DNA of 64,000 bases, from the NCBI RefSeq assembly GCF_032118995.1, contig NC_092649.1:20645832-20709831 (forward strand), in the 5' to 3' direction. Positions 5,855 to 52,384 of the stretch are shown piece by piece (the stretch's first letter is position 1; each line of letters starts with the position of its first letter). Below the pieces are notes generated by a model. It did not search any database and was not told the origin of the DNA. It worked only from the letters and a program-made list of their open reading frames with translations. Source of the DNA: Asterias amurensis. Its lineage: Eukaryota > Echinodermata > Asteroidea > Forcipulatida > Asteriidae. Position numbers and translations under genes: made by a program.

Positions 5855-6814
5855 ATGGAGGAAACTCTTGTTTTGCGTATCTACCAAGACATCGTTGGCA
5901 CTATTGGGATCCTTTGCAATGTTTTAGTTTGCTTCGTCATCTTCAAAGTACGATCAATGCAGACGCGTACAAACGCCTTCATATTTCATCAAGCAGTCAT
6001 TGATCTATTGGGCTCCATCTTGATCGTCTTGAGAAGTGAAATCCCAGTGCCTGAGATAGTCCCAAGCGATGGCCTAGGCTGGTTCCTCTGTCACGTCTGG
6101 CATATCAACTGCCCCCAGTTCTACATTTCCATAGAGTCAACGAGTAGCCTGTTACTGTTGACCCTGGAGCGGTACTACGCCATCGTTCACCCCTTCAAGT
6201 ACCAGGCAGCATTCGCTGCTCGGCCCAAGCTCAAAGTCGGTGTGTGCATGGCGGTGTCTTGGGTTCTGGCCTTTATCCCGATAATATACTGCTTCTTCAA
6301 TTTTGAGGCAAAGAACGGACAATGCGTTCCGGTTGCGATTCCAGGTGCCAACATTATCGGAACTCTTGTGGTAGTCATGCAATACGTCGTCCCAGTTGCT
6401 GTGATGCTCTTCGCTTACATTCGCATCAGTGTGGAGATGAAGCGGGGAGCAGCCCGTGTCGGCCCGGCACCAGCCCAGCATCTCCCCGGTGGAGCAAACG
6501 CACCGGACATGGCCGAGTCCCTCCTCCGTGCAAGACGCAACACATTCAAGATGCTTCTGATCGTCTTCATCACTTTCTTGATCTGCTGGACACCAAACCA
6601 GATAATCTTTCTGTTGTTTAATCTCGGTTTCGATATACCGCTGAGTGGCTGGTTTTATTATCTCTCTGTCGCAATGGTTGCCTCAAACTCTTGCGTCAAC
6701 CCGATGATTTACGCTTTCAAGTACCGTCAGTTTCGTAATGGATTACGTCAGATATTTTGCCGCCAACGAAATCAAGCAAATGATATGAGCACAATATCAA
6801 CCGGTACCGGGTAA
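5855..6814 (+). CDS. Class A (rhodopsin-like) GPCR, paralog copy A
   Basis: Single-exon 319-residue seven-transmembrane receptor. Landmarks: N22 (TM1), D50 (TM2), C79 and C157 (expected extracellular disulfide), E105-R106-Y107 at the DRY position, W136 (TM4), P180 and Y188 (TM5), CWTP 244-247 (TM6), NPMIY 292-296 (TM7) and C312 in helix 8, a possible palmitoylation site. The N-terminus is only about eight residues and has no glycosylation sequon or signal peptide. The start codon has A at -3 and G at +4 and aligns with the paralogs. It differs from copy B at 12 residues (96% identical). Odd features: C21 replaces the glycine next to N22, and the TATA-like box seen upstream of copy B reads TATGAAG here. 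Family membership is clear. A chemosensory role is inferred from tandem expansion, and ligand and G protein are unknown. Confidence 0.93.
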   Translation: MEETLVLRIYQDIVGTIGILCNVLVCFVIFKVRSMQTRTNAFIFHQAVIDLLGSILIVLRSEIPVPEIVPSDGLGWFLCHVWHINCPQFYISIESTSSLLLLTLERYYAIVHPFKYQAAFAARPKLKVGVCMAVSWVLAFIPIIYCFFNFEAKNGQCVPVAIPGANIIGTLVVVMQYVVPVAVMLFAYIRISVEMKRGAARVGPAPAQHLPGGANAPDMAESLLRARRNTFKMLLIVFITFLICWTPNQIIFLLFNLGFDIPLSGWFYYLSVAMVASNSCVNPMIYAFKYRQFRNGLRQIFCRQRNQANDMSTISTGTG

Positions 6815-6830
6815 CGCATTGGTACCCTTG

Positions 6831-6853
6831 AAGAGGTATATCAATAACCTCTT
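6831..6853 (+). other. Possible 3'-UTR hairpin of copy A
   Basis: Sixteen bases after the stop codon, AAGAGGT can pair with ACCTCTT across a nine-base loop. Copies B, D and E have a hairpin at the equivalent place. It is short, so chance or shared descent alone is possible. Confidence 0.35.
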
Positions 6854-6877
6854 AGTATCAAAACACTCTTTATAATT

Positions 6878-7140
6878 GGGTTTGAGGCCATGCATGGTGA
6901 GGTATCAATATATACATGTATTTGCTTTGCGTGTGTGTGTCTACTTTCCAGATGGAGTTCGTTCTTTACTGTCTTGCTATTGTGTTCTAATACTATAGTA
7001 GAATTTTCAGATTTTTCGGGAGACTTCTCGGTTCCGAAAAGAACTGTCCTGTTTTCAACTGCTTCATGGGCGGGAGGTAGAGAATCGGCTGGGACTACTA
7101 TGATTTTTATTAACTGCACTACCACGGAGTGAGTTCTTAT
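6878..7140 (+). repeat. Interspersed repeat, family 5
   Basis: Begins GGGTTTGAGGCCATGC and ends ACCACGGAGTGAGTTC. Related copies lie at 16837-17085, 22101-22390, 22437-22555 and 27738-27995. Shared landmarks are GTGAGGTATCA, GAACTGTC, GGGCGG and CGGCTGGGACTACTA. It lies between the stop codon and a 3' flank shared with copies D and E. No terminal inverted repeats were found; it could be a SINE-like element or duplicated flank. Confidence 0.7.
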
Positions 7141-7309
7141 TGGTCTCAACGTTAAAATCTTGAACATTTCATCTTAAATAACCAAGAAGGGATCGGTGTA
7201 CACGGAACATATCCACAGTTGCGATCCCATCAAGGGAGGAGGTGCCCTCCTATAGAGGATAAGATGTTTCACTGCTGCACGTGTACTAACTTTAACGCAA
7301 AACACTATC

Positions 7310-7735
7310 GTTTAAACTTGTCCTTTTGGATCTTCACTGGCTCCCATTATCATATATAGGATCATCTACAGACTCATCTCAAAGTACTTTAATGGGCAAG
7401 AACCTGCTTACATTCTGAACATGCTCTAAACCTATACAAACCATCTCGCACCTCTCGGGGGAGGGGGGGCAGAATTGTTTTCTTCTGTTGCAGCATCTCG
7501 TCTATGGAATCAACTACCTCTTTATATCAAACATCCACTTCTTATTCACTCTTTCAAAACATCTCTCAAACACATCTCATGTCGAAAGATCCATTTCTTT
7601 GTATTTTTGAACTTTGGTTAAAATGTTTGTTTTAGTTGGCATTGCAATAGCGCCCTGAGCACTTTAGTGGATACATCTGTTCTTTATAATACTTCGTCGT
7701 TATAATAAATATTTTTATTAATTTATAATTGTTTG
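7310..7735 (+). mobile_element. LINE relic, CR1/L2-type 3' end
   Basis: One frame reads LVLLDLHWLPL near 7314-7346, the conserved phrase just after the reverse transcriptase in CR1/L2-like LINEs. A CACTTTAGTGG...TATAATAAATA tail closes it at about 7735. The coding part is frameshifted and truncated. Compared with 17268-17720 it lacks about 65 bp and has a G run in that place. Shared by both units, so it is older than the duplication. Confidence 0.7.
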
Positions 7736-7799
7736 AAATGATGGTTTAACTAAGAGAAGTTTACGGATAACATCACGTGAATTTCTCTTTTGAGGTTTA

Positions 7800-8035
7800 C
7801 GCCCCACTCATGCCCGCGCGTGCTTCACTGATCTAAGCCCAGCTTACACGTTTCCCGCATTCATGCATCACCAAGCCTATAGTACCTAAGCAGCATCCAG
7901 CAACAGAATCTAGCATTCTCCTGAAGATGATCAGAACATACCGGTCGAAACGTTGGGTCGTTAAAAACTGGTTCTTTTTTAGAACCAATACTACTCAAAA
8001 GAGATATTCACAATGTGTTTCCGAAAACCTATCTT
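7800..8035 (+). mobile_element. Penelope-like relic with hammerhead-like core
   Basis: The phrase CTGAAGATGATC...GGTCGAAACG at 7921-7952 resembles the junction motif of Penelope-like elements. CTGAAGA fits the hammerhead CUGANGA box, GATC can pair with GGTC as stem II, and GAAAC follows. Stems I and III are not convincing. A hairpin GGTTCT/AGAACC follows at about 7970-7987. No protein-coding part remains. The matching copy in unit 2 is at 17760-18050. Confidence 0.45.
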
Positions 8036-8234
8036 AGTTATACTTCCACCATGAACAGTTTTTTTTTAAATCCTTCTTAAAATGATAATTTTAAAATATG
8101 TATAGTGGCTCCAAGTTCAATTCTATTTGTTGATCCTCACTATAAAAAAAAAAAACAATTTGTGAGATACATCTAGCACAAGATATCGTGTTGTTAGAGC
8201 GATAGTGTGGTTTTCAGTGCACTTTGACATTAAT

Positions 8235-8655
8235 TAACCTCCATTGAGAGACTGTCTGTGAGAAAACAACCTTCATTGAGTGACTGTCTTTTTAGAAAAT
8301 AACCTCCATTTATAGATTGTCTGTGAGGAAATAACCTCCATTGACTAACTGTATGCGAGAAAATAACCTCAATTGAGAGACTGCGTGTGAGAAAATAACA
8401 TCCAGTGAGTGACTGCCTGTGAGAAAATTACCTCCATTGAGAGACTAACCTCACTTGAGAGACTACGTGTGAGAAAATAACCTCCATTGAGAAACTGCGT
8501 GTGAGACTGTGTGAGAAAATAACCTGCATTGAGTGACTGTCTGTGAGAAATCGACCTCCATTGAGTTAATGTCTGTGAGAAAATAACCTCCATTGAGATA
8601 CTGTCTGTGAGAAAATAACCTTCATTGAGACACTGTCTGGTAGAAAATAACCTCA
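8235..8655 (+). repeat. 31-bp minisatellite, short allele
   Basis: About 13 tandem degenerate copies of a unit like TAACCTCCATTGAGAGAC followed by TGTCTGTGAGAAAA. The last unit runs into MITE-1 sequence (CAACATTATGCATAACA), so the array seems to have grown at or in a MITE-1 copy. The counterpart at 18205-18775 is about 150 bp longer. The open frames on either strand are translated repeat. Confidence 0.95.
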
Positions 8656-8967
8656 ACATTATGCATAACAAAATTAAAAAAATTGTGAAAATATTTACTC
8701 AATTGGTCATTGAAGTTGCAAGAGAATAATGAAAAAAAAAAAAAAAACTCTTGTTGCTGAAATTATTGTGCTTTCAGATGCATAATATTACAGGTGTTCA
8801 GGCCTGAATTCTTTTGCTATTTGAATGAGAAATTATCTATTTCTCAAAAACATTAGTCATTTCTTTCAATGTGTTATACTATCAACAGCTCTCCATTGCT
8901 CGTTACAATGTAAATGTTTATGCTAACAATTATGTTGAGTAATTACTAATAGTGTCTGTGCCTTTGA
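8645..8967 (-). mobile_element. MITE-1 copy joined to the minisatellite
   Basis: Landmarks run from CAACATTATGCATAAC through GTCATTGAAGTTGCAAGAG, CTTTCAGATGCATAA and TATCAACAGCTCTCC to GTCTGTGCCTTTGAC. The outer part of one end is replaced by the minisatellite. Confidence 0.85.
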
Positions 8968-9363
8968 CAAGAATGACATGTTTTGTCCGCTGCCCGTATG
9001 AATATATAACGTTGATCCTGAGTGCAAACCGTGCAAAGCTATTGTAATTCCACTCATGTTTCAACAAGGGACTGGATCACTTAGCAATATGTCAACATTG
9101 TGGAGTCACAATTGACTGTCAAAATAAATCATCCACAAAAGTACTAATGATTATTATATGAAATTACCCAATAAATCTAATCTTGCCAAAACGGAGAGTG
9201 GAAACAAAATGATTAAACAAAAAACTATTGGAAATTCGCTTTGGATTGTTAGCTGAAAATGAAACTATCTTTTAGTACAGTAACCGTGTTTGGACATAGC
9301 ACATTTTAATAGACTATTCACCAGAGCCAAAGAATAAAATAAATAAAATACTTCAAAAGGAAA

Positions 9364-9383
9364 TGCTACACCCCCCCCCCCCC
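9364..9383 (+). repeat. Short C homopolymer run
   Basis: A C-only tract; the copy in unit 2 (about 19480-19489) is shorter. Flanking DNA at 8968-9819 shows no gene. Confidence 0.8.
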
Positions 9384-9819
9384 TTAAAAACAAAACCACT
9401 ATAACGACAACAAAGTTAACAAACCACCAATATACGGCACAACAGAGTCGCAAGATAATTTAACACACAAGGTAAAAGGAGCCTACTGTTTGTTTCAAGC
9501 TGCAAATATATACTGGTGACTAACGTTTGGAAATTTAATTTCAAAAGTATAGTAGCCTTTTTTAGATATTGCCGAAAATCTGGAGCGGTTTTTATTCAAC
9601 GCATGATGAATAATCTGCAACAGGAAGACACATTCTAAGAAGCGTTCCCGCGGTAACGCTTCTCAAATTCGGACTGTTGTGGATAAAAAGTGTTATCGCA
9701 GTACAAACAAAATTCTCGAAATGCTTTATTCAAATCTGCTGTACTTGTTGTATTACCAAAGTGAAGGTTTTATTGCCTTTAATTTTCAGAGTCATTATAC
9801 AAAACGTATACAGACCATT

Positions 9820-10058
9820 TTAAGGCACTGGACACGATTGGTTATTACTAAAAATCATTGTGAGAGAAACGTGAAGAAACGGCTCCCTCTGAAGTAACGT
9901 AGTTTATGAGAAAGAAGTAATTTCGCACTAAAATTTTTTAATTTGATTTCGAGACCTCAGAATTTGATGTCGAGGTCTGAAAACCTAGCATCTGAAAACA
10001 CACAATTTGTTCAACATTGTGTTTTTTTTTCCTTTCATTATTCTCTCGCAACTTCGAC
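9820..10058 (+). mobile_element. MITE-1 copy, truncated at the duplication edge
   Basis: Starts TTAAGGCACTGGACACG and carries GGCTCCCTCTGAAGTAACG. It stops at ACTTCGAC, exactly where similarity to unit 2 ends; the unit-2 counterpart (19931-20275) continues to a full right end. The right part was probably lost here during rearrangement. Confidence 0.85.
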
Positions 10059-10224
10059 AACCCAGGGAAGCTAAACGAACGCACCCATTGTAAGCTCTGT
10101 TGGTTCAAGTTTTGTGTGCAATGATAATGTTCTTGCGGATACTCTGTTATGACATCCTAGATCTTCTTTAGCACCACAACAATATGGGGCGCCGTTTGTC
10201 CATTAATTGTTTGACACTTTTAAG

Positions 10225-10890
10225 GCATGTTTTTACCATGGTTTACAGCAATTAGATGTAAACCATAGAAACTGTTGCCAAATCCTGTTATGGTTTACAT
10301 ACCAGTAAAGTATTTGTTGTGTATAAGTTTATGGTTTACAAACCATGAACATACAAAAAACATTTACAAATCATGGTTCATAAACCAAGAAAATTTACGC
10401 ATCTTAAAAACATGGTTTATAAACCATAAAAAATGAAGCATCAAATTCATGGTTTACAAATCATGGTTTACAAACCATAAAAATTGAGACATCTAAAAAA
10501 CATGGTTTATAAACCATGAAAATTGAAGAATAAAAATCGTGGTTTACAAATCATAGTTTATAAACCATAACAAATGAACCATACAATCATGGTTTGTGAC
10601 AATGGTTTATAAACCATGAAAATCGAGACTTCTTAAAAAACATGGTTTATAAACCATGAAAATCGAGACTTCTTAATAAACATGGTTTATAAACCATGAA
10701 AATTTACACATCTCAAAAACGTTGTTTGTAAACCATAAAAAAGTGCACTTACAAATCATGGTTTACAAACCATAAAAATGTGCACTCAAAAATCATGGTT
10801 TACAAACCATAAAAAATGTGCAGTCAGAAATCATGGTTTATAAACCATAAAAACGTGCACTCACAAATCATGGTTTACAAACATTTACAC
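10225..10890. repeat. Palindromic minisatellite (ATGGTTTATAAACCAT core)
   Basis: More than a dozen units, each a near-perfect palindrome ATGGTTTAYAAACCAT separated by A-rich spacers of varying length (often with GAGACTTCTTAAAA or GTGCACTCA). Every unit can form its own small hairpin, and units can pair with any other. The spacers are not constant, so this is not a CRISPR array. Confidence 0.95.
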
Positions 10891-10914
10891 AAATTTCAAT
10901 AACATTTCTGACAT

Positions 10915-11060
10915 GTCGTGGCCGGGCAGATAACAACCCAGACTCAAGCTCTGATGGTGTTGCTGTGGGTTCGAGTCCCGGTCGGAACACTTATAGACTG
11001 TGCAAGTCTCGCGCGCACCGGAGGGAGAAAACACGACAACTGAAGAACTTTGCTTCAAAT
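10915..11060 (+). mobile_element. tRNA-derived SINE head
   Basis: GTCGTGGCCGGGCAG resembles a tRNA A box and GTGGGTTCGAGTCCCG is a good B box 50 bp later, spaced as in Leu/Ser-type tRNAs. The acceptor arm does not pair well, so this is a SINE or tRNA relic and not a functional tRNA. No clear 3' body is recognised. Confidence 0.55.
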
Positions 11061-11383
11061 CTTTGCTTTAATTTTTTCTTAATGCCGAATCTGAACAACA
11101 AAAAAGTTGTTAAGTTTTTAACCTATTGTTAAGCTAAGGTTGAATTATCATCTCCCTTGATATTACAGGAGTTAAGTTACTTGGGATTAAGTTAAAGATG
11201 GATAAAACTAAAAGCACTTCAGATGTCCAACCGCATTATAAACAATGTTCTTAGAAACGAGATTTCCTTGATGTCAGAAGGACATACAAATAAGTGGAGC
11301 AAGAAGGGATAGGTTAAGTATTTGACGTTGTAAAGGACTGACAAGTAGGGCATGTAAACATTCACATCGAACGCATGGAATTA
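11061..11383. other. Intergenic, nothing recognised
   Basis: AT-rich DNA with no repeat family match within the window and no coding signal. Confidence 0.5.
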
Positions 11384-11940: not shown

Positions 11941-12006
11941 AGTAAACCAAACGTGTACCTTCCCTATATAGGCAGTGCATATGAACCTGTATGTCACAGT
12001 CAATAA

Positions 12007-15600: not shown

Positions 15601-15718
15601 TTCAACCCTAAGGTTTTGTGCGCGTGGATTACTTTTTCTATCGAGATTTGATTAAAAGTGATTTCACCAACAAAGAACTACCGTACACCGTATTCAAGCT
15701 CATAAGTTGATTTCTGTT

Positions 15719-15814: not shown

Positions 15815-16774
15815 ATGGAGGAAACTCTTGTTTTGCGTATCTACCAAGACATTGTTGGCATTCTTGGGATCCTTGGCAATGTTTTAGTCTGCTTCGTCAT
15901 CTACAAAGTACGATCAATGCAGACGCGTACAAACGCCTTCATATTTCATCAAGCTGTCATTGATCTATTGGGCTCCATCTTGATCATCTTGAGAAGTGAA
16001 ATCCTGGTGCCTGAGATAATCCCAAGCGATGGCCTAGGCTGGTTCCTCTGTCACGTCTGGCATATTAACTGCCCCCAGTTCTACATTTTCCTAGAGTCAA
16101 CGAGTAGCCTGTTACTGTTGACCCTGGAGCGGTACTACGCCATCGTTCACCCCTTCAAGTACCAGGCAGCATTCGCTGCTCGGCCCAAGCTCAAAGTCGG
16201 TGTGTGCATGGCGGTGTCTTGGGTTCTGGCCTTTATTCCGATAATATACTGCCTCTTCAATTTTGAGGCAAAGAACGGACAGTGCGTTCCGGTTGCGATT
16301 CCAGGCGCCAACATTATCGGAACTCTTGTGGTAGTCATGCAATACGTCATCCCAGTTGCTGTGATGCTCTTCGCTTACATTCGCATCAGTGTGGAGATGA
16401 AGCGGGGAGCAGCCCGTGTCGGCCCGGCACCAGCCCAGCATCTTCCCGGTGGAGCAAACGCACCGAACATGGCCGAGTCCCTCCTCCGTGCAAGACGCAA
16501 CACCTTCAAGATGCTTCTGATCGTCTTCATCACTTTCTTGATCTGCTGGACACCCAACCAGATCATCTTTCTGTTGTTTAATCTTGGTTTCGATATACCG
16601 CTTAGTGGCTGGTTTTATTATCTCTCTGTCGCAATGGTTGCCTCAAACTCTTGCGTCAACCCGATGATTTACGCTTTCAAGTACCGTCAGTTTCGTAATG
16701 GATTACGTCAGATATTTTGCCGCCAACGAAATCAAGCAAATGATATGAGCACAATATCAACCGGTACCGGGTAA
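15815..16774 (+). CDS. Class A (rhodopsin-like) GPCR, paralog copy B
   Basis: Single-exon 319-residue receptor, 307 of 319 residues identical to copy A and the more canonical of the two: G21-N22 is intact in TM1. Landmarks have the same numbering: D50, C79, E105-R106-Y107, W136, C157, P180, Y188, CWTP 244-247, NPMIY 292-296. Substitutions from copy A cluster in TM1 (16, 17, 21, 30), late TM2/ECL1 (58, 64, 69) and TM3 (92, 93); N218 replaces D218 in ICL3. It has a TATA-like box and several upstream module copies. It is a recent duplicate of copy A and probably a chemoreceptor by context; its ligand is unknown. Confidence 0.94.
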   Translation: MEETLVLRIYQDIVGILGILGNVLVCFVIYKVRSMQTRTNAFIFHQAVIDLLGSILIILRSEILVPEIIPSDGLGWFLCHVWHINCPQFYIFLESTSSLLLLTLERYYAIVHPFKYQAAFAARPKLKVGVCMAVSWVLAFIPIIYCLFNFEAKNGQCVPVAIPGANIIGTLVVVMQYVIPVAVMLFAYIRISVEMKRGAARVGPAPAQHLPGGANAPNMAESLLRARRNTFKMLLIVFITFLICWTPNQIIFLLFNLGFDIPLSGWFYYLSVAMVASNSCVNPMIYAFKYRQFRNGLRQIFCRQRNQANDMSTISTGTG

Positions 16775-18204: not shown

Positions 18205-18775
18205 TAACCTCCATAGAGAGACTGTCTGTGAGAAAATAACTTCCATTGAGACACTGTCTGTGAGAAAATAACCTTCACTGAGTGACTGTCTTTTTAGAAA
18301 ATAACCTCCATTGAGGGACTGCGTGTGAGAAAATAACCTCAATTGAGTGACTGCGTGTGAGAAAATAACCTCAATTGAGTGACTGCGTGTGAGAATATAA
18401 CCTCAATTGAGTGACTGCGTGTGAAAAAATAACTCAGCTCCACTGAGTGACTGTGTGTGAGAAAATAACATCTAGTGAGTGAATGTCTGTGAGAAAATTA
18501 CCTCCATTGAGAGACTCCGTGTGAGAAAATAACCTCCATTGAGAGACTACGTGTGAGAAAATAACCTCCATTGAGAGACTATACGTGTGAGAAAGTAACC
18601 TCCATTGAGAAACTGCGTGTGAGACTGTGTGTGTGAAAATAACCTGCATTGAGTGACTGTCTGTGAGACATTGACCTCCATTTAGAGAATGTATGTGAGA
18701 AAATAACCTCCATTGAGTTACTCTCTGTGATAAAATAACCTTCATTGAGAGACTGTCTGTGAGAAAATAACCTCA
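18205..18775 (+). repeat. 31-bp minisatellite, long allele
   Basis: About 18 copies of the same unit as at 8235-8655. Locally homogenised runs occur, such as three successive near-identical units with CAATTGAGTGACTGCGTG around 18330-18420, which indicates array expansion after the segmental duplication. Confidence 0.95.
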
Positions 18776-22678: not shown

Positions 22679-23617
22679 ATGGACGGCCTGCTTGCCCTGC
22701 GTATCTACCAAGACATTGTTGGCATTATTGGGATCCTGGGCAATGGTTTAGTCTGCTTCGTCATCTACAAAGTACGATCAATGCAGACGCGCACAAACGC
22801 CTTTATCTTTCATCAAGCAGTCATTGATTTCCTGAGTTCTGTGGTTATTTTGCTAAAGAGTGAGCTCTTGCTACCGTATCCTATTCAAAATGGACCTTTA
22901 GGGTGGTTCATCTGCCGTGTATGGTTTACTAACTTAACACTCTTCTTTTTCTTTGCGTTGTCGACGTTTAACCTGTTGGTGTTGACCATGGAGAGGTATT
23001 TTGCTATAGTTCACCCCTTCAAGTACCAGGCGGCGTTCATCACTTGGCCTAGGCTGAAAGTTGCTTTAACAGTTGCGATGTGCTGGATTCTTGATTTGGC
23101 TACTAAGTTTTATCTTCTTTTCTACGCAAAAGTTGAAGATGGCATCTGTGTTCGGAATTCCATTCCAGGAGCCAACATTATTGGCACTCTTGTTGTTATC
23201 CTTCAATACGTCGTCCCAGTTGCTGTGATGCTCTTCGCTTACATTCGCATCAGTGTTGAGATGAAGCGGGGAGCAGCCCGTGTCGGCCCGGCACCAGCCC
23301 AGCATCTTCCCGGTGGAGCAAACGCACCGGACATGGCCGAGTCCCTCCTCCGGGCAAGACGTAACACCTTCAAGATGCTTCTGATCGTTTTCATCACGTT
23401 CTTGATCTGCTGGACGCCGAACCAAGTAATCTTCTTTATGTTTAACCTTGGCATTAACATTAAGCTGAATGAATGGTTTTATTATCTCTCTGTCGCAATG
23501 GTTGCCACAAACTCTTGCGTCAACCCGATGATTTACGCTTTCAAGTACCGTCAGTTTCGTAATGGATTGCGTCAGATATTTTGCAAGAGATTTGAGCAAA
23601 CTAATGCTTTGGAATAA
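22679..23617 (+). CDS. Class A (rhodopsin-like) GPCR, paralog copy C
   Basis: Single-exon 312-residue receptor of the same family. Landmarks keep the numbering of copy A: N22, D50, C79, E105-R106-Y107, W136, C157, P180, Y188, CWTP 244-247, NPMIY 292-296. TM1-TM2 (about residues 9-50) and residues 177-250 are nearly identical to the other copies. Residues 52-175 are strongly different, with an FFFF-rich TM3 start and a new ECL2. The N-terminus MDGLLAL matches copy E. The tail after C312 (KRFEQTNALE) is shorter and unique. The start has A at -3 and G at +4; no TATA-like box is evident. Probably a functional receptor with a different ligand specificity (inference). Confidence 0.93.
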   Translation: MDGLLALRIYQDIVGIIGILGNGLVCFVIYKVRSMQTRTNAFIFHQAVIDFLSSVVILLKSELLLPYPIQNGPLGWFICRVWFTNLTLFFFFALSTFNLLVLTMERYFAIVHPFKYQAAFITWPRLKVALTVAMCWILDLATKFYLLFYAKVEDGICVRNSIPGANIIGTLVVILQYVVPVAVMLFAYIRISVEMKRGAARVGPAPAQHLPGGANAPDMAESLLRARRNTFKMLLIVFITFLICWTPNQVIFFMFNLGINIKLNEWFYYLSVAMVATNSCVNPMIYAFKYRQFRNGLRQIFCKRFEQTNALE

Positions 23618-31540: not shown

Positions 31541-32497
31541 ATGGAAGACATTCTACTTTTGCGTATCTACCAAGACATTGTTGGCATTCTTGGGATCCTT
31601 GGCAATGGTTTAGTCTGCTTCGTCATCTTCAAAGTACGATCAATGCAGACTCGTACAAACGCCTTCATCTTTCATCAAGCCGTCATTGATTTCTTGGGCT
31701 CTACGGTGATTCTTCTGAAAAGTGAAGCTCCACTTCCAGAGCCCATCCCAAGCAACGCTCTGGGGCGATTCATCTGTCATGTCTGGGTTATTTTCATCTT
31801 TTTCTTCTTCTCCGTGATGTCGACTTTCAACCTGTTGGTGTTGACCATGGAGCGGTACTACGCCATCGTTCACCCCTTCAAGTACCAGGCAGCGTTCGCC
31901 ACTTGGCCCAAGCTCAAAGTCGGTGTGGCCATGGCCATGTGTTGGATTTTTGCTCTCATCGTCAAGTACTATAATCTTATAATATTTGAGGAGCAAAATG
32001 GGGTGTGTGTTACGGTTGCTATACCAGGAGCGAAGATAATAGGAGTAATTGTGGCCACAGTGCAGTACATCTTGCCTGTAGCGGTGATGCTCTTTGCTTA
32101 TATTCAAATCAGTGTGGAGATGAAGCGGGGAGCAGCCCGTGTCGGCCCGGCACCAGCCCAGCATCTTCCCGGTGGAGCAAACGCACCGGACATGGCCGAG
32201 TCCCTCCTCCGGGCAAGACGTAACACCTTCAAGATGCTTCTGATCGTTTTTATCACGTTCTTGATCTGCTGGACACCCAACCAGGTCATCTTTCTCATGT
32301 TTAATCTTGGTCTGGACATAACACTTAAGGAATGGTTTTATTATCTCTCTGTCGCGATGGTTGGCACAAACTCTTGCGTCAACCCGATGATTTACGCTTT
32401 CAAGTACCGTCAGTTTCGTAATGGATTACGTCAAATATTTTGCAGGAAACGAAATGACGCCAATGATATCAGCGCTATAACGTCCGGTACTGGGTAA
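31541..32497 (+). CDS. Class A (rhodopsin-like) GPCR, paralog copy D
   Basis: Single-exon receptor of 318 residues from the ATG at 31541. An in-frame ATG at 31505 would add 12 residues, but 31541 lies in a strong ACCATGG context and aligns with the paralogs (MEDILLLRIYQD). One residue is missing in TM3, so landmarks are N22, D50, C79, E104-R105-Y106, CWTP 243-246 and NPMIY 291-295. TM3 begins with an unusual aromatic run (IFIFFFF). ICL3 is identical to the others except Q for R in FAYIQIS. The tail CRKRNDANDISAITSGTG is a variant of the A/B/E tail. A TATA-like box and three tandem upstream units precede it. Ligand unknown. Confidence 0.93.
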   Translation: MEDILLLRIYQDIVGILGILGNGLVCFVIFKVRSMQTRTNAFIFHQAVIDFLGSTVILLKSEAPLPEPIPSNALGRFICHVWVIFIFFFFSVMSTFNLLVLTMERYYAIVHPFKYQAAFATWPKLKVGVAMAMCWIFALIVKYYNLIIFEEQNGVCVTVAIPGAKIIGVIVATVQYILPVAVMLFAYIQISVEMKRGAARVGPAPAQHLPGGANAPDMAESLLRARRNTFKMLLIVFITFLICWTPNQVIFLMFNLGLDITLKEWFYYLSVAMVGTNSCVNPMIYAFKYRQFRNGLRQIFCRKRNDANDISAITSGTG

Positions 32498-43577: not shown

Positions 43578-44987
43578 AGGTGTCTAGGGGGAATTCTCTT
43601 TGTCCCCCAATGTGAAATTAACGTGGGCTGAGAATGATTAAAAAGAGGGCACCTTCAGAAGAAGTTTACAGTTCGCCGTCACAGGAGATTCCGTGCCCCC
43701 CTCTGATATTTGAAGTCCTCCCCCATTATGGTCAACTCTGTACAAACTTCTTCTGATGGCGCCCTCTTTTGAATCGTGCCCCCCACCCCCCCCCCTCCTG
43801 AGTTTTGGTGTCCCCCCCATAATGATCAACTCTGTACAAACTTCTTCTGATGGCGCCCCCTTTTGAATCGTGCCCCCACCCCCCTCCTGAGTTTTGGTGT
43901 GCCCCCCCCCATAATGATCAACTCTGTACAAACTTCTTCTGATGGCGCCCTCTTTTGAATCGTGCCCCCCCCTCCTGAGTTTTTGTGTGTCCCCCCCCCC
44001 CCCCATAATGATCAACTCTGTACAAACTTCTTCTGATGGCGCCCTCTTTTGAATCGTGCCCCCCCCCTCCTGAGTTTTTGTGTGTCCCCCCCCCCCATAC
44101 AGGTCAACTCTGTACAAACTTCTTCTGATATAATATAATAATAAACGTAATAATTCAGTCATCTGCAGCGATAGATTATTGATGATAACTGTAATTATGA
44201 ATTATGATTAGTGAGCTCTGTGTATAATTTAGATAAGGAAAGTGGAGAACTTGCTGGAGACATCTTGAAAGATAATTACTAATCTTTCTTGAAGGACAGA
44301 CCCTGATGAGATTAAATAGCGTAGCAGCTGATGCTATTTTCTTCTCCACTGTGGAAACGGCATTTCTCCCATGCATTGTACGTGTACCGTATTGTACAGC
44401 TTGAATGTAACGTAATCAAAATATTAAATGGCATTATTCTTGCCCCTATCAAGACCATACATATTTATTTATTTTTTAATCATTTATTTAAGTATTATTA
44501 TTTTTATTTATTTTTTCTTTTTTAAAATTTTATTATTACTATTTTTTTACGACATAATACTGAAAGCAAACAAGTCTACAGAAAACTTGCTAGCATTGTC
44601 AACAATTTTTTTTTATTCACTGAAAACGAGCTTGATGGATATTATTTAAATTTCAGCCTGGCGGCCATCTTGGCCAAGTTAAAATCGATTTCAAACAAAC
44701 GGGCTGCCACGGTAATAGCTGGACGAGATTTGTATTGTGAATAGTGGGAGGGATTTTGTGTTGATCAGATGCATTTGTTTAAAGGTCGTGGGCAAAACAA
44801 AAATGCGTTGTGTGTTTACAAATTTTACCTTCAGTATGGGATGAGATTCTGCCCCCCCCCCCCGCATAGGGCAAACTGTGTACAAACTTCTTCTTAGCGC
44901 ACTCTTTTCAACCCTTCTCCTCCGACCCCTGTTATTTTCCCATTATGTGGGGAAAAATCTCCGAAGGACGAAATTCCCTGTGACACC
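43578..44987. mobile_element. 1.4-kb TIR element with internal tandem array
   Basis: The left end (GGTGTCTAGGGGGAATTCTC...AAAAAGAGGGCACC...AGAAGAAGTTTACAG) resembles the reverse complement of the right end (GGTGTCACAGGGAATTTCG...AAAAGAGTGCGC...AGAAGAAGTTTGTACAC). Arms are about 120 bp and imperfect. Inside the left arm a roughly 93-bp unit is repeated about five times. No transposase is seen. Confidence 0.72.
43723..44130 (+). repeat. Tandem array of a 93-bp unit
   Basis: Units start near 43723, 43818, 43908, 44003 and 44095 with CATAATGATCAACTCTG, ACAAACTTCTTCTGATGG, CGCCCTCTTTTGAATCG and C runs of varying length. The 174-codon minus-strand frame is translated repeat (EEVCTELIIMGG). Confidence 0.95.
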
Positions 44988-46159: not shown

Positions 46160-46422
46160 TTAAAGGCCTTGGACACCTTCGGCAACTGTCAAAAACCGGT
46201 ATTCTCACTTGGTGTATCCCAACATACGCATAAAAGAACAAATCTGTGAACATTTTAACTTAACTGGTCATTGACGTTGCAAGAGAAATTAGAGCAACAC
46301 CTTTTTGCATTACTTTGTTTTGCTTTCAGATGCATAGAATGCTTCCTCATTTCTTGTTTTGATTAGAGTGAGAAATTACATTTTTCTTAAAACGTGACTT
46401 CAGAGGGAGCCGTTCCCATTCA
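46160..46422 (-). mobile_element. MITE-1 copy, right end missing
   Basis: TTAAAGGCCTTGGACACC to CAGAGGGAGCCGTTCCC, then unrelated DNA. Confidence 0.85.
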
Positions 46423-47656
46423 GTTAAATTGTTCTCTCGCCAACCTTGAACGGTAAGTGTCTAGCTGTAGTAGTAGCTACGTCCTTTTCCGATCCTGCTT
46501 TTGGTTCTTCATTTCAGATATTGCTAATAGGCAGCGTGCCTCAAGCTTAGATCACGGTCTAATAAATATAATATCTGTCCGACTCTGAGGCACACGATTT
46601 GATATTATTTTAACAATGCATCAAGGTTTAGGGTATAGTCTCAAGTCCCAATCCCGTGCCATCCCAAGAAAACCATTGTTTTGTGATGTTCTGGATTCAC
46701 CAACTGGTCCTCGGGACCACGTATTGAAGGCGAGCGCGCACTCCTGTACAGATTGTTTGCTAGTACGTTAGTGTAGTTGCCGCGATATCGAGTCTAGGTT
46801 TGAGGGCAAGCAATGAAGATCCATACCGGAAATTACCCATTTAAACAAACAAATAATGCATCTCATGTTATATGGGAGACAGATGATGCCAACGGTGCTT
46901 GAGTCCAGTCATAGAGCAAGGAACGGTGGAACAGTTAACGGCTAAATAACTAAATATCAATCAGCCGTAAAGTAGACCAATATTCACCCAAAACCACACC
47001 AGCTTTGTGTGTAACATACCCTCTGTAGACATTTACTTGTTCTGTACAATAAAACTGTTAATACTAATAATAATAATAACCGTATTTATAACGCGCCTTT
47101 TTGCCAAAGGATACAAAGCGCCAGGTATTATTACTGCAAGGAATGGGGCGAATTGTTGAGATATAAGACCTATTAATCCTTAAAGACCTGCTTGAACGAA
47201 AATGTCAAGTCGTGAACTTTGCTGAATTCCACTTAAAATGTTTTCGATGAATAAGGAAATCGAGTCATATGATTATAAATAGGTTTCAATTGTGTAAAAA
47301 AATCATTTTGTATGCCCTTGTCCAGAGCTTTTCTGCGAGATTTGCGAAAAGCCCCGTTACGTAATCACTCTCAAAACGTCATAAGTAGATAAAGCCGCTT
47401 TGTTGCAGCGTTGATGTATAACAAAGCAAACTCCCACAAATGACGTCAGCGGCATTGTCCTTTGACGCCCGCTCTCAACGGCAGAAGTGTTTTTAGTCTT
47501 TCAAAAAACCTTTAGGTAGGGGCCTGATTTTTTAATCGATAATTACGAAAAGTTCAGAAGTGTACACATATCAAAATTACATTAAAATGGTGAACAAGTG
47601 CATTAAAAACAAGTAAAAATACATTTTCTGTTGAAAACATTCCGCCCAGGTAGCTG
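46423..47656. other. Intergenic
   Basis: An ATA tract with TATTTATAACGCGCC and CAAAGCGCCAGG at 47060-47135 is a repeat start like 26005. TCAGCCGTAAAG/GCTGG phrases recur at 46960 and 48060. No gene seen. Confidence 0.45.
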
Positions 47657-47957
47657 TTTAAGCACCATGTAAATGGTTTACAAGGTGCTGTGGCTGCGGT
47701 ACAATATGCTGCCAATCCAGCCAGGATCACCGGGGCTAACCCCTTCTCTTTTCGATAAGTGCAATGTTTTTTTTTTACATGCGTTTACACAACACATGGG
47801 ACCAACGGCTTTACGTCCCATCCGAAGGACGAAGCAATGGTAATGTGTCTTGCTTAAGGACACAAGTGTCACGGCTGGGGAATCGAACCCACACTCTGCT
47901 GATCAGAAACACAAGAGTTTGAATTCGGTGCTCTTAACCGCTCGGCCACGACACTCC
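47657..47957 (-). mobile_element. tRNA-derived SINE with conserved core
   Basis: Minus strand: GTCGTGGCCGAGCGGTTAAG (A box, Leu/Ser-like), GTGGGTTCGATTCCCC (B box), then a core with CTTCGTCCTTCGGATGGGAC and GCCGTTGGTCC, then ATCGAAAAGAGAAGGGG and a tail TGTAAACCATTTACATGG. The module order (tRNA head, central domain, tail) is complete, about 300 bp. It resembles conserved-core SINEs; the exact superfamily was not checked. Confidence 0.82.
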
Positions 47958-48483
47958 CAAATTACCACACTATAAATTAACAATCCATCTCATACTTGGA
48001 GAGCAACCAGTGCCAACAGCGCTTGAGTCTATTTTACGGCTGAATAATTCAGAGTCTAAATTGATCAGCCGTAAGCTGGACCCAACACACATGCCAAAAC
48101 CACACCCAGCTATAAGGCGCACCAAGCTACTTCTCTCTGTGGACTATAGCCTTTGTACTTTTGTTATATATACCTTCGTACAATAATTTTGTTCTCATTC
48201 ATGTTTATATTTTACTAGATATTAACAATGGAAAATAACATTCTGTCTTTGTTTATTGAATATCAGTGTTACTGGACATTATATGACTATTATTCCTAAA
48301 GGTATTTACGCGATTGGTAAAGATAGAAACATTGATTCTTAAAAACTATCTGATTATAAAGTTCCTAAAGAACCTTTCTTTTTCTGTGAATTTTTTTCTC
48401 TCTGAAATGAGGTCATATCTGAAAACCTTAATTAATAAATAAAAACACCGCAAATAGCTGATTTCGATTGTTACAGTACAAAA
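47958..48483. other. Intergenic, nothing recognised
   Basis: AT-rich; no gene. Confidence 0.4.
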
Positions 48484-48815
48484 TTAAAGTGCCTCGGTGC
48501 CTTGGATCGGGCGAGTTGGTCTAGAAATGCGTTTGACACCTTTTGTTATGAAATGCATATGTTAGATAGATGTTTTAAAAGTAAAATGATCCACACATCA
48601 ATGCCTCGGAATTGCACGGTTTTCCTTATATATGTCACAACACGCCATTTTGTGGAGTCAATAATTCGACTCAACAAAATGGCCAAACGTGTTAGTTCGC
48701 AAACCGTCCCAATGCGAGGCATTTGTATGGATGGTGTAACTATTCTACTTTTAAAACATCTCTCCAGCCGTTTGCATTTTATAACATGGTTTCAAACGCT
48801 CTTCATAGACCAACT
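48484..48815. mobile_element. MITE-3 copy, old
   Basis: TTAAAGTGCCTCGGTGCC-TTGGATCGGGCGAGTTGG at the left; GCATTTTATAAC...CATAGACCAACTC at the right, with a central CATTTTGTGGAGTC/GACTCAACAAAATG palindrome. The right terminus is lost. The 161-codon frame across it is not a gene. Confidence 0.82.
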
Positions 48816-49011
48816 CCCCCATAAGAACAACAAATGCTGGACATTGTGCATTGCTTTTCACCATTTTCTCCTTACTCAAGCAACGACTCGAGGAAAAATT
48901 ACATTTCATGAACATCACACAAAACATGAACACTGTCCACGACTGTTTGATCAGTTCTACCAATCCTGTAAAAAACATTGCATTTAACAACTGCCAACCA
49001 AATATATTTTC

Positions 49012-49399
49012 TTAAAGACACGAGACACTAATGGTAATTGTCAAAGACCAGTCGTTTCACTTGGTGTATCTCAACATATGCAAAAAATAACCAACCTGTG
49101 AAAATTTGAGCTCGATTGGTTGTCGGAGTTGCCAGATAATAATGAAAGAAAAAACACACCCTTGTCACTCGAAGTTGTGTGCTTTCAGATGCTTGATTTC
49201 GAGACCTCAAATTCTAAACTTGAGGTCTCGAAATCAAATTCGTGTAAAATTACTTCTTTCTCGAAAACTACGTCACTTCAGAGGGAGCCGTTTCTCACAA
49301 TGTTTTATATAATCAACCTTTCCCCATGACTCGTTACCAAGTGAGGTTTTATGCTGAAAATTATTTTGAGTAATAACCAACAGTGTCCACTGCCTTTAA
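49012..49399 (-). mobile_element. MITE-1 copy, TTAA at both ends
   Basis: TTAAAGACACGAGACAC to GTGTCCACTGCCTTTAA, well preserved. Confidence 0.92.
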
Positions 49400-50969
49400 T
49401 AAAAAAAACCATACAAGAAACTGCAAATTTTGTGCAGTAATATTGTGCGTTAAACAGACAAAATTTGGATACAATATATGATGCTCAAATGACTTCCTAT
49501 GTTTAACAACTAGAACCAATACGATAGTCACATTACGCACGAGGTGTATACATTTTTACCATTAGCAATGTTTTAGTGAAATACATCAATAATCATTTAC
49601 CACGCAGTTGGAATTACTAAGATGGTGACCATTATGCAAAATAATAAACTATCATGTTACTTGTTTTTTATGCAAATCAACTTTTATGCAAATCGCCTAT
49701 TTTTGGTTATCGTTAGTCACATAAAACGTTTTAAGAGTCAGATCAGTTAAATATTAGACATAATGTGTCCAAGGTCAATGTTGTATACTATGTGGGTGCA
49801 AGTTTAACACAATTGCATTTTTAGTTTAATATAATTATAGCCAGTTACCATGGTTGCAGCTTAAATTCCAATATCTAGGGACATCAACCATTTGTGAATC
49901 ATGTTGGGTAATCCAATAAGCATACAGAGTGCTCTTATTGTCATCCTCTAATGTAAGTTATTAATGCAATTTGAAGCAATCATTTCAAAATGTGATTTCC
50001 CTGTTTTTTTTAAACATTCTCAATGCATGTTCTTAAAATAGCATAAGGGTGAAGTTTATAGCAATAATGTAGTCTCAAGTAAAGCCAAGGATGATAATTT
50101 TTAGTAATACAACATTATTTTGCATTTTGGTGGGTAGAAATTATAAATATGAGCTTAAAACCAGTTTTCAGGCCCCAGAATTGGCCTTAAACGACCCCCA
50201 AAGATCTGTTACCATGGCAACGGGCTTTATATTGGATTGAAAGTGCGATTTCGTTTACTTGCATCCCGTCCCTTCCACCCACAAAGTATGAACAAACTAA
50301 TACAAATTGACCGTGTACACATGTCAAATAGTAACCTGGTGACTGTTAAAAGTAAAACAAAAACAATATTCAAGCAATAATTCTGTTTAATGCTTGACAA
50401 ACTGATAGTTTTTGTGGCGGTGCAATATGGTTTCACGGACATGGAAAGACTGTAATTTTAAAACATTTTAAGTGTCATTCTGAACGATTTACACAATTTC
50501 CTCGACAGGACATGCAGCTTAAAAACATTATGTTGAATGTACTTACGTTGAATATTTGAAACAAAACACAAAGTGAATACAAAAGCTCTGTCGACAACAA
50601 ACTTGCTGGGTTAACAATACATTTTATACCTTAACAAGGCACACTGGTGGTACCACATTAGACAAGGGGTCATGTCACCTGCACCACCACAGATATAATA
50701 TCTTACGAAACTTTTGGTGCTCAATATATTATGTGAAATCAAACGTACAGTTATATAGCGGCCATTGATCCATATTGGCAACACCATTTTAGTAGTAAGC
50801 CGTTTGCAACAGCTACCTTCACATTCGTTGCAAGACACTGCAGTTTCCACGTGGTATCTCACTAAACTCAACTAATGTGTTCAACGTTTTCAGAGTCCAG
50901 TTTCTGTTTAGTTACAAATATCCATGTTCAATCTTGGCTTGGTGTATATTCAGACCGGGAAACATTTAC
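49400..50969. other. Intergenic, nothing recognised
   Basis: 1.5 kb of AT-rich DNA with no recognised repeat or gene, the longest quiet stretch between copies D and E. Confidence 0.45.
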
Positions 50970-51030
50970 CGCCGACTATAAGGTTTAGACCGGTCCCTTC
51001 TCGGTAATTTAAGTTGATGTGTGTAAGATT
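50970..51030 (-). repeat. 3'-flank block of copy E shared with copy D
   Basis: On the minus strand CTTACACACATCAACTTAAA-TTACCGAGAAGG-GACCGGTCTA matches 32588-32630 downstream of copy D, and more weakly 7170-7200 downstream of copy A. Confidence 0.75.
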
Positions 51031-51361
51031 TAAAGACACTGGAAACATTAAATAACCAATATTCCCTCTAGTAGGTGTATCCCAACATAAGCATAAAATA
51101 ACAAGTCTGTGAAAATTTTGACTCAATTGGTAATCGAAATTGGAAAAGAAAAATGACAGATAATCCCCTTGTTGCCCAAATGTGCGTGCTTTCATTATGC
51201 CTTTTGAAACTGAGTGAGGAATGACCTCAAAAAAGACTTCATTTTTCACAATGTTTTTTTGTGTGTGTGTTATAAAATGCTCCCCAATGCTCGTTACCAA
51301 GTAAGTTTTTTATGCTAACATTTATTTATTTGAGTAATGTTGAGTAATTACCAGTGCCCTA
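51030..51361 (-). mobile_element. MITE-1 copy between copy E and its old 3' flank
   Basis: TTAAAGACACTGGAAAC at the left and a decayed right end near AATTACCAGTGCCC. Confidence 0.82.
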
Positions 51362-51424
51362 ACAAAAAGTGTTTTAATATGATGAGGTTATTATTTTTAC
51401 ACCTCCTTTAGAGTTCTCAATGCG

Positions 51425-52384
51425 TTACCCGGTACCGGTTGATATTGTGCTCATATCATTTGCTTGATTTCGTTGTCTGCAAAATATCTGACGTAATCCA
51501 TTACGAAACTGACGGTACTTGAAAGCGTAAATCATCGGGTTGACGCAAGAGTTTGAGGCAACCATTGCGACAGTTATGAAGAAAAACCAGCCATTGAACT
51601 GAATGTCTATCCCAAGATTAAACATAAGAAAGATGACCTGGTTAGGCGTCCAGCAGATCAAGAATGTTATGAAGACGATCAGGAGCATCTTGAAGGTGTT
51701 GCGTCTTGCACGGAGGAGGGACTCGGCCATGTCCGGTGCGTTTGCTCCACCGGGAAGATGCTGGGCTGGTGCCGGGCCGACACGGGCTGCTCCCCGCTTC
51801 ATCTCCACACTGATGCGAATGTAGGCGAAGAGCATCACGGCAACCGGGACGACGTACTGCAAGACCGCGACAATAACTCCAATTATGTTCGCTCCTGGGA
51901 TCAGATTCTGAACACATTTACCGTTTTCCTCTTTGTAAATCAGCAAAGTATACGACATCAGAATGGTATTGAAAATCCAACACATCGCCATAGACATTGA
52001 GACTTTCAGCCGAGGCCAAGTGGTGAATGCTGCCTGATATTTGAAGGGGTAAACGATGGCGAAATACCGCTCCATGGTCAACACCAATAAATTGAAGGTC
52101 GACAGAATGAAGAAGTAAAACAGCGAATAGTTTGAAACCCAGAACTGGCAGGTAAACCGTCCCAGAGCGTTGCTTGGGATAGTATCAGGCAAGACGATTT
52201 CATTTCTTAAGACATTCATGGTAGAGCCAAGTAAATCAATGACTGCTTGATGAAATATGAAGGCGTTTGTACGCGTCTGCATTGTTCGTACTTTGAAGAT
52301 GACGAAGCAAACTAAACCATTGCCCAGGATCCCGACTATACCGGTGAGGTCTTGGTAGATCCGCAGAGCAAGCAGGCCGTCCAT
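51425..52384 (-). CDS. Class A (rhodopsin-like) GPCR, paralog copy E
   Basis: Single-exon 319-residue receptor on the minus strand, inverted relative to copies A-D. Landmarks: N22, D50, C79, E105-R106-Y107, W136, C157, P180, Y188, CWTP 244-247, NPMIY 292-296. The N-terminus MDGLLALRIYQD matches copy C, the ECL1 motif SNALGRF matches copy D, and the tail CRQRNQANDMSTISTGTG is identical to copies A and B: a mosaic. TM6-TM7 has a divergent extracellular end (DIQFNGWFFFITVAM). Y112 replaces the H of the VHPFKY motif in ICL2. The start AACATGG context and a TATA-like box 70 bp upstream support this start. Likely functional; ligand unknown. Confidence 0.94.
   Translation of the reverse strand: MDGLLALRIYQDLTGIVGILGNGLVCFVIFKVRTMQTRTNAFIFHQAVIDLLGSTMNVLRNEIVLPDTIPSNALGRFTCQFWVSNYSLFYFFILSTFNLLVLTMERYFAIVYPFKYQAAFTTWPRLKVSMSMAMCWIFNTILMSYTLLIYKEENGKCVQNLIPGANIIGVIVAVLQYVVPVAVMLFAYIRISVEMKRGAARVGPAPAQHLPGGANAPDMAESLLRARRNTFKMLLIVFITFLICWTPNQVIFLMFNLGIDIQFNGWFFFITVAMVASNSCVNPMIYAFKYRQFRNGLRQIFCRQRNQANDMSTISTGTG

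What the first reader, a model, noticed from the sequence alone, without database searches (positions are those of the whole stretch)
5855..52384. Five GPCR paralogs are mosaics: conserved ends and ICL3, diverged ligand-pocket region
Residues 9-50 and about 177-250, plus TM7-helix 8, are nearly identical in all five copies, while residues 52-175 (late TM2, ECL1, TM3-TM5 start, ECL2) differ strongly. The sharp alternation within a single exon is hard to explain by uniform descent. It fits repeated gene conversion of the cytoplasmic-facing parts, with diversification of the binding side. Tandem single-exon expansions are known in echinoderms; the conversion boundaries are inference.
Basis: partly seen in the sequence, partly recalled or inferred. 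Interest (0 to 1): 0.8.

Follow-up and report, generated by a model that had tools for sequence, protein, structure and literature searches.

The report
Receptors with shared chassis, private pockets
In a cluster of smell-receptor-like genes, the stretches coding for the inner, signalling side of the protein appear to be copied from gene to gene while the stretches coding for the outer, ligand-binding side stay old and different, and several other receptor clusters in the same genome lean the same way.

Summary
Across A, C, D and E (B is a near-copy of A), pS by segment is 0.24 (TM1-ICL1), 0.78 (TM2-TM3), 0.43 (ICL2), 0.66 (TM4-ECL2-TM5), 0.10 (ICL3), 0.49 (TM6), 0.64 (ECL3) and 0.06 (TM7-helix 8). 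One genealogy with regional silent rates is rejected (2dlnL 513 against 203±19 in 17 simulations); segment trees reject each other in 11 of 12 comparisons. TM7-helix 8 is homogenised within this group and, separately, within a group spanning two chromosomes. Best explanation: repeated interlocus gene conversion of cytoplasmic-side segments, pockets left unconverted. The direction recurs: extracellular silent divergence exceeds cytoplasmic in 13 of 14 usable sets, though only 5 are individually significant. Positive selection on the window's pockets is not shown. Divergence peaks under conversion are known (human opsins); several peaks and troughs in one exon, recurring across clusters, is a new variant.

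The parts
5855..6814 (+). Receptor gene A (319 aa, single exon)
   Evidence: ORF; Pfam 7tm_1 E=3.2e-34
15815..16774 (+). Receptor gene B (319 aa), recent segmental duplicate of A
22679..23617 (+). Receptor gene C (312 aa)
31541..32497 (+). Receptor gene D (first ATG of the ORF listed from TTG 31505)
51425..52384 (-). Receptor gene E (319 aa), opposite strand
   Evidence: 7tm_1 E=3.6e-36
52235..52324 (-). Homogenised segment 1 in E: residues 21-50 (TM1 inner half, ICL1, TM2 inner half)
   Evidence: pS 0.17 among A,C,D,E
51695..51814 (-). Homogenised segment 3 in E: residues 191-230 (TM5 end, ICL3, TM6 start)
   Evidence: pS 0.09
51482..51553 (-). Homogenised segment 4 in E: about residues 278-301 (TM7 inner half, helix 8); A and E identical here
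   Evidence: pS 0.06 among A,C,D,E and A-E distance 0.000 in alignment columns 278-306; difference map; pS 0.15 for residues 278-305, which include divergent C-tail codons
52088..52234 (-). Divergent segment in E: residues 51-99 (TM2 outer half, ECL1, TM3)
   Evidence: pS 0.78
51845..52024 (-). Divergent segment in E: residues 121-180 (TM4, ECL2, TM5 outer half)
   Evidence: pS 0.66
51554..51637 (-).
   Evidence: pS 0.52
5915..6004 (+). Homogenised segment 1 in A (residues 21-50)
6425..6544 (+). Homogenised segment 3 in A (residues 191-230)
6686..6757 (+). Homogenised segment 4 in A (residues 278-301)
6005..6151 (+). Divergent segment in A (residues 51-99)
6215..6394 (+). Divergent segment in A (residues 121-180)
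6602..6685 (+). Divergent segment in A (residues 250-277)
15875..15964 (+). Segment 1 in B (residues 21-50), same state as A
16385..16504 (+). Segment 3 in B (residues 191-230), same state as A
16646..16717 (+). Segment 4 in B (residues 278-301), identical to A and E
22739..22828 (+). Homogenised segment 1 in C
23249..23368 (+). Homogenised segment 3 in C
23510..23581 (+). Homogenised segment 4 in C
31601..31690 (+). Homogenised segment 1 in D
32108..32227 (+). Homogenised segment 3 in D (shifted by one codon for D's one-residue gap)
32369..32440 (+). Homogenised segment 4 in D

Best explanation
These are old tandem paralogs of a rhodopsin-class, chemoreceptor-like GPCR. Interlocus gene conversion has repeatedly overwritten the segments coding for the cytoplasmic face: inner TM1-ICL1-TM2, ICL3, inner TM7-helix 8 and, more weakly, ICL2; the homogenised islands are about 70-120 bp long. 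The outer-half segments (outer TM2-ECL1-TM3, TM4-ECL2-TM5, outer TM6-ECL3-TM7) were largely not overwritten and keep the age of the original duplications. Shown: mosaicism at silent sites, incongruent genealogies, separate homogenisation in separate groups, and the same direction in most other clusters tested. Inferred: that the process is conversion rather than another form of exchange, and why the pockets are spared. I think selection removes converted pockets because each receptor needs its own ligand range, and divergence then makes the pocket a poor substrate for recombination, so conserved islands keep converting and divergent ones do not. Converted cytoplasmic segments are tolerated or favoured because the copies share the same G protein, arrestin and kinase partners (recalled general GPCR knowledge, not tested).
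For: Silent contrast: 4-fold columns polymorphic in 11/49 homogenised, 17/22 divergent (p=1.9e-5) and 13/17 protein-conserved control columns (p=2.2e-4). Topology: AU tests reject the other segment's best tree in 11 of 12 cross-comparisons (exception: TM7-H8 data with the TM1 tree, p=0.19). One tree with regional silent rates: 2dlnL 513.4 against null 203.4±18.7, maximum 237.2, 17 replicates. Group specificity: TM7-H8 pS is 0.06 within A,C,D,E and 0.02-0.03 within the 6.08-6.10-Mb plus C9 group, but 0.58-0.63 between them; pocket pN within A,C,D,E (0.26-0.29) is about that against the ten other close paralogs (0.22-0.34). Runs: 14 of 105 pairs significant after Bonferroni, 12 in ICL3 and 2 in ICL2. 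Old pairs show little silent bias: cytoplasmic 0.60, extracellular 0.67, n=946, though these are near saturation. Flanks of A against C, D, E do not align collinearly beyond the CDS plus tens of bases of 3' sequence, so these copies are not recent duplicates. Recurrence: 13 of 14 usable sets; distance decay in 9 of 9 sets, 8 with p<0.05.
Against: The run test on the five window copies alone is not significant, and none of the 14 Bonferroni-significant runs joins two window copies (the best window pairs there, C-D and B-E, have uncorrected p about 0.004). By my arithmetic, BIC favours the single-tree model (about 6617 against 6982), although AIC (6446 against 6245) and the simulations favour separate trees. 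Pocket data do not reject monophyly of A-E (AU p=0.27). Saturation in old pairs would also hide a constant rate difference, so alone cannot exclude constraint. TM6 and ICL2 are protein-conserved but only partly homogenised and have high GC3 (0.75, 0.72), so some codon constraint may contribute. Only 5 of 14 sets have circular-shift p<0.05; C12 19.06 Mb (r=-0.00), C18 2.7 Mb (r=-0.05) and C5 8.25 Mb (r=0.00) show no depth correlation. Some tracts include TM2-TM3 (C12) or ECL3 (C18), and one C5 20.6-Mb gene has an unhomogenised ICL3 (0.75-0.92). Four reverse-pattern pairs were listed. No other species was available to show paralogs more alike than orthologs.
Confidence: 0.82

Rival explanations
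1. Uniform descent plus protein-level constraint: all segments are equally old and only amino-acid conservation differs along the gene.
For: In the window copies the homogenised parts are among the protein-conserved parts.
Against: Silent divergence differs several-fold at 4-fold sites in shared codon families; ICL2 and TM6 have pN 0.12 and 0.02 with pS 0.43-0.49, beside ICL3 at pS 0.10.
Confidence: 0.02
2. DNA-level constraint or low local mutation in ICL3, ICL1 and helix 8 (codon bias, RNA structure, overlapping element) holds silent sites down on one shared genealogy.
For: Low silent divergence recurs on the cytoplasmic side in several clusters; ICL2 and TM6 have high GC3; old pairs are saturated, so they cannot by themselves exclude a rate difference.
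Against: TM7-H8 pS against the ten other close paralogs, four of them in the same 227-kb cluster, is 0.58-0.89, and ICL3 against the C14 gene is 0.78 (its protein differs there too). In 946 old pairs ICL3 (0.64), TM1 (0.60) and TM7-H8 (0.54) are near TM4-5 (0.66). A one-tree, regional-rate model is rejected by simulation. Tract positions differ between clusters. TM1 and TM7-H8 GC3 is ordinary (0.50).
Confidence: 0.06
3. Recent duplication with imported pockets: A-E are young copies of one gene whose pockets were replaced by conversion from distant paralogs.
For: A-E are separated from the other ten genes in the best TM1 and TM7-H8 trees but not in the best pocket tree (nor in the ICL3-TM6 tree). 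D has a one-residue deletion in the same loop as the 6-Mb, C9 and C14 genes (gap placed within a few columns), and its pocket is nearest to the 6.09-Mb gene (27.6% nucleotide difference, against 29.6% to E).
Against: Flanks of C, D, E do not align collinearly with A, which young duplicates should, while the young A/B pair aligns over 3.4 kb. Among the 15 close genes no pocket lies nearer than 27.6% to A, C, D or E, apart from A-B; a dedicated donor search over the whole genome was not made. Pocket data do not reject A-E monophyly.
Confidence: 0.07
4. Rival on the reason only: conversion is shaped by sequence identity alone, without selection on ligand range; segments that drifted apart first stopped converting.
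For: The strongest islands are protein-conserved; silent divergence falls with distance from variable codons; omega gives no sign of positive selection in the window pockets.
Against: The divergent side is the outer half in 13 of 14 sets, and M2a improves on M1a in two clusters (C5 p=0.0055, C12 p=0.019), though conversion can produce that falsely.
Confidence: 0.3

Closest known systems
Human red/green opsin genes: divergence peak at exon 5 under ongoing gene conversion (PMC3924837, passages read; Teshima and Innan 2008 cited there, itself not held)
   Same: GPCR tandem paralogs, conversion elsewhere, divergence peak where function differs
   Different: Two genes, one peak around two functional sites against flanking introns; here several peaks and troughs inside one exon in four independent copies, with the same direction in other clusters
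CCR2/CCR5 and CCR1/CCR3 chemokine receptors (PMC2880985, passages read)
   Same: GPCR paralogs with conversion reported mainly in transmembrane regions, and positive selection reported in extracellular parts
   Different: Pairs rather than arrays; conversions there also overwrote extracellular loops 1, 2 or 3 in some species
Vertebrate chemoreceptor families with reported conversion: V1R in mice (PMC2644715, passages read) and OlfC in catfish (PMC6588630, passages read)
   Same: Tandem chemoreceptor GPCR families with gene conversion inferred from dS or GENECONV
   Different: The passages seen do not relate conversion tracts to membrane topology
GOT1 paralogs of the copepod Tigriopus (PMC3728101, abstract and outline seen)
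   Same: Mosaic of high and low divergence under continuing conversion
   Different: Transaminase enzyme, gene pairs, no membrane topology
Starfish putative olfactory GPCR clusters, ApORs, compared there with sea urchin surreal-GPCRs (PMC5442662, passages read)
   Same: Rhodopsin-like tandem arrays in an echinoderm, in both orientations
   Different: No occurrence of 'gene conversion' in that paper's main text; sequence membership not tested here

Membership tests
Rhodopsin-class (class A) GPCR | Pfam 7tm_1 above curated cut-off | tested here: met
   A 119.0 and E 125.4 bits against 30.5; B, C, D not scanned
Rhodopsin-class (class A) GPCR | Landmarks N1.50, D2.50, (D/E)RY, W4.50, P5.50, CWxP, NPxxY | tested here: met
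   N22, D50, R106, W136, P180, P247, P283 located in E; landmark names recalled
Echinoderm olfactory / surreal-type GPCR | Tandem clusters of rhodopsin-class genes | tested here: met
   Nine close paralogs within 227 kb
Echinoderm olfactory / surreal-type GPCR | Sequence grouping with published ApOR or surreal genes | not tested
   I did not obtain such sequences
Echinoderm olfactory / surreal-type GPCR | Expression in tube feet or sensory tentacles | not testable with these tools
   No expression data
Paralogs with a divergence peak maintained under gene conversion | Low silent divergence outside the peak, high inside | tested here: met
Paralogs with a divergence peak maintained under gene conversion | Incongruent genealogies between segments | tested here: met
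   11 of 12 AU comparisons
Paralogs with a divergence peak maintained under gene conversion | Divergent selection at the peak | tested here: inconclusive
   M2a against M1a p=0.86 in window genes, p=1 in the 6-Mb/C9 group, 0.0055 and 0.019 in two other clusters
Paralogs with a divergence peak maintained under gene conversion | Paralogs more alike than orthologs outside the peak | not testable with these tools
   No related animal genome available; the genome search states that it has no relatives here

The most novel reading that the evidence does not exclude
Across this genome's chemoreceptor-like GPCR clusters, gene conversion is phased to membrane topology: the inner, signalling half evolves as a shared chassis, locally per cluster and sometimes between chromosomes, while each gene keeps a private outer half. 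DNA recombination, not only protein constraint, would then hold the modular receptor architecture in place.
Probability: 0.45. Interest if true: 0.75.

Novelty: new variant of a known kind. Interest (0 to 1): 0.58.

Why it matters
How sensory receptor arrays keep a common signalling interface while diversifying ligand range is often put down to protein constraint. Here silent sites indicate that recombination does part of the work, inside a single exon, with troughs at cytoplasmic elements and peaks on the outer side. It also warns that whole-gene trees and whole-gene dN/dS for such arrays mix different genealogies, and it offers many parallel clusters for testing the theory of selection under gene conversion.

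Tried and rejected
A GENECONV-style run test on the five window genes gave nothing significant; it has little power where all copies are identical, so it was repeated on 15 genes using silent sites only. The structure prediction of E from five window sequences was poor (pLDDT 44.7), so no fold search was made, and the membrane depth is an approximation from recalled landmark geometry that was not checked against a structure. The amino-acid difference columns printed are wrong for single-pair sets (restricted by mistake to identical residues) and are not used. IQ-TREE codon models timed out without output; a small codon-model script of my own, one starting point per model, replaced them, so its likelihood-ratio tests are approximate. 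GC-biased conversion as the driver: GC3 of the homogenised TM1 and TM7-H8 segments is ordinary (0.50), so it was not pursued. Orphan donor cassettes: a 231-bp ICL3-TM6 query found 29 places (29 of 29 candidates scored); compared by eye, 15 are the close paralogs and 14 lie inside other receptor hits listed there, so no orphan fragment of that segment was seen. Pocket fragments were not searched for in this way. Recent duplication plus imported pockets was rejected mainly on flanks.

Choices that affect counts: B was left out of the A,C,D,E comparisons because it is a near-copy of A (it is included). One search used 14 of 15 sets (one had no usable pair) and only pairs with silent difference above 0.05 and identity above 0.55. 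One search used chosen representatives for four sets (C12 3 of 8, C18 3 of 5, C5 8.25 Mb 2 of 3, C2 19.3 Mb 2 of 3) and one control set. One search finished 17 of 32 planned replicates. One search printed only pairs with whole-gene pS below 0.65. The four reverse pairs are those with a difference above 0.15 and identity above 0.45 (the printed heading says 0.1). The analysis covers 67 genes: 15 close paralogs and 52 receptor-like ORFs of the 53 ORFs of 250 aa or more found in loci L019-L048; many other matches were not fetched. Alignment columns run ahead of E residue numbers by 1 to 4.


Full report
WHAT IS THERE. The window carries five intact single-exon receptor ORFs of one family, four on + and one on -. 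A and E score far above the Pfam 7tm_1 cut-off and the class A landmarks are present in E. Among solved structures the best of 652 matched sequences is a somatostatin receptor 5 construct at 72 bits, so no close named relative was found there. The window lies at C2:20645832-20709831 of a 491.5-Mb assembly of 23 contigs. Contig 23 is 16,427 bases long and carries a COX1 in which all 8 AAA codons of the stretch examined fall where the aligned PDB chain has Asn (compared by eye), as in the echinoderm/flatworm mitochondrial code. With 22 other contigs this fits a starfish (chromosome number recalled, not tested). The genome holds 129 matches to the E protein at E<=0.001 (a lower bound); 15 are close (at least 63% identity), nine of them within 227 kb around the window.

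THE MOSAIC IS SILENT. Among A, C, D and E, pS by segment runs 0.24, 0.78, 0.43, 0.66, 0.10, 0.49, 0.64, 0.06 from TM1 to helix 8. With bootstrap intervals in E residue numbers: 9-20, 0.38 [0.18-0.53]; 21-50, 0.17 [0.06-0.29]; 51-99, 0.78 [0.68-0.87]; 100-120, 0.39 [0.23-0.59]; 121-180, 0.66 [0.55-0.76]; 181-190, 0.43 [0.20-0.73]; 191-230, 0.09 [0.02-0.16]; 231-249, 0.46 [0.24-0.66]; 250-277, 0.52 [0.35-0.70]; 278-305, 0.15 [0.03-0.30], the last including C-tail codons that differ. At 4-fold columns the homogenised segments are polymorphic in 11 of 49, the divergent ones in 17 of 22, and the protein-conserved controls ICL2 plus TM6 in 13 of 17. Residues 231-249 make the point by themselves: pN is 0.00, yet silent divergence climbs steadily in windows moving away from ICL3, from 0.02 to 0.66. 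So protein constraint alone does not explain it.

EDGES. The difference map shows sharp steps: A-C has 6 differences in columns 171-180 and 0 in 181-190; A-E has 9 and 7 in columns 261-280 and 0 in 281-300. E lacks homogenisation in columns 11-20. Similarity at the 3' end of A, B, D and E continues for tens of bases past the stop, after which flanks do not align collinearly; A and B alone share kilobases.

CONVERSION RATHER THAN CONSTRAINT. If silent sites in ICL3 and helix 8 were constrained, they should be constrained in every comparison. TM7-H8 pS against the ten other close paralogs is 0.58-0.89, including 0.74-0.86 against the four other genes of the same 227-kb cluster; ICL3 is shared across that cluster (0.07-0.16) but is 0.44 against the 4.04-Mb gene and 0.78 against the C14 gene. 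In 946 old between-cluster pairs ICL3 (0.64), TM1 (0.60) and TM7-H8 (0.54) are near TM4-5 (0.66); saturation limits what this shows. A second group, three genes at C2 6.08-6.10 Mb plus one on C9, has its own homogenised TM7-H8 (0.02-0.03), 0.58-0.63 from the window's version. With third positions, separate trees beat one tree with regional rates by 2dlnL 513.4; simulations under the one-tree model gave 203.4±18.7, maximum 237.2, in 17 replicates. AIC agrees, BIC by my arithmetic does not. AU tests reject foreign segment trees in 11 of 12 cases; pocket data do not reject A-E monophyly. Fourteen of 105 pairs keep significant silent runs after Bonferroni: 12 in ICL3 among genes of the 20-Mb cluster, each involving at least one gene outside the window, and 2 in ICL2 between the 4.04-Mb gene and two 6-Mb genes. 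Within the window alone the run test is not significant.

OLD POCKETS, NOT NEW ONES. Pocket pN within A, C, D, E (0.26-0.29) is about that against the ten other paralogs (0.22-0.34), so the pockets look as old as the split from those genes. Flanks of A against C, D and E do not align, so these genes are not young duplicates. The frame is what looks young.

GENERALITY. In 14 usable sets, silent divergence at amino-acid-identical codons is higher on the extracellular than the cytoplasmic side in 13 (Wilcoxon p=1.8e-4; combined circular-shift p=2e-5), using an approximate depth scale; 5 of 14 are significant singly. The exception is C18 2.7 Mb, and the difference at C12 19.06 Mb is negligible (0.27 against 0.26). 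The C5 20.6-Mb cluster is the clearest: ICL2 0.05-0.24, TM4-TM5 0.42-0.81, ECL3 0.52-0.92 in 15 pairs, though one of its genes has a divergent ICL3 (0.75-0.92). Silent divergence falls with distance from protein-variable codons in 9 of 9 sets, 8 with p<0.05; an old cross-cluster control is weaker (rho -0.18, p=0.069). The sets come from one genome and related families, so they are not fully independent.

MECHANISM. Shown: inner-side segments are homogenised between old paralogs while most outer-side ones are not. Inferred: the agent is gene conversion, and selection for separate ligand ranges plus the homology requirement of recombination make the pattern self-reinforcing. Against a selection role, omega in the window pockets is 0.20 and M2a adds nothing (p=0.86); two other clusters give p=0.0055 and 0.019, but conversion inside the analysed region can mimic this (passages of PMC2880985 and PMC3924837 both warn of it). 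I therefore give the homology-gating rival substantial weight.

KNOWN OR NEW. A divergence peak under conversion is established for red/green opsins (PMC3924837), and conversion plus extracellular selection for CC chemokine receptors (PMC2880985). Starfish receptor clusters are described without the term gene conversion (PMC5442662). My eight paper searches listed, by title and abstract opening, no report of topology-phased conversion across GPCR arrays; most lists were capped and cover only open-licence PMC papers, so this is weak evidence of absence. I rate it a new variant of a known kind.

Noticed in passing
window 59139-60176 +: A further intact rhodopsin-class receptor ORF (345 aa, 7tm_1 139 bits); it is not among the 15 close paralogs.
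   Followed up: partly
G000:C5 658874-660214 and 675294-676634, - strand: Two COX1 matches on contig 5 lie 16,420 bases apart, almost exactly the length of contig 23 (16,427), which suggests a head-to-tail insertion of whole mitochondrial genomes or an assembly artefact.
   Followed up: no
window 8235-8654 and 18205-18774: A 32-bp tandem repeat array lies downstream of both A and B, within the segmental duplication, and the two listed arrays differ in length.
   Followed up: no
flanks of many paralogs, e.g. about 1.5-1.9 kb upstream of D: Dispersed repeats of roughly 390 bp recur at about 70-92% identity in flanks of genes on several chromosomes.
   Followed up: no
window 43696-44129: Tandem array of about 92-94 bp units rich in C runs; a 174-aa minus-strand ORF overlaps it and looks spurious.
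   Followed up: no
L010 (C2:20.866 Mb) against L014 (C2:20.820 Mb): Near-identical receptors whose C-tails differ: 304 against 317 aa.
   Followed up: no
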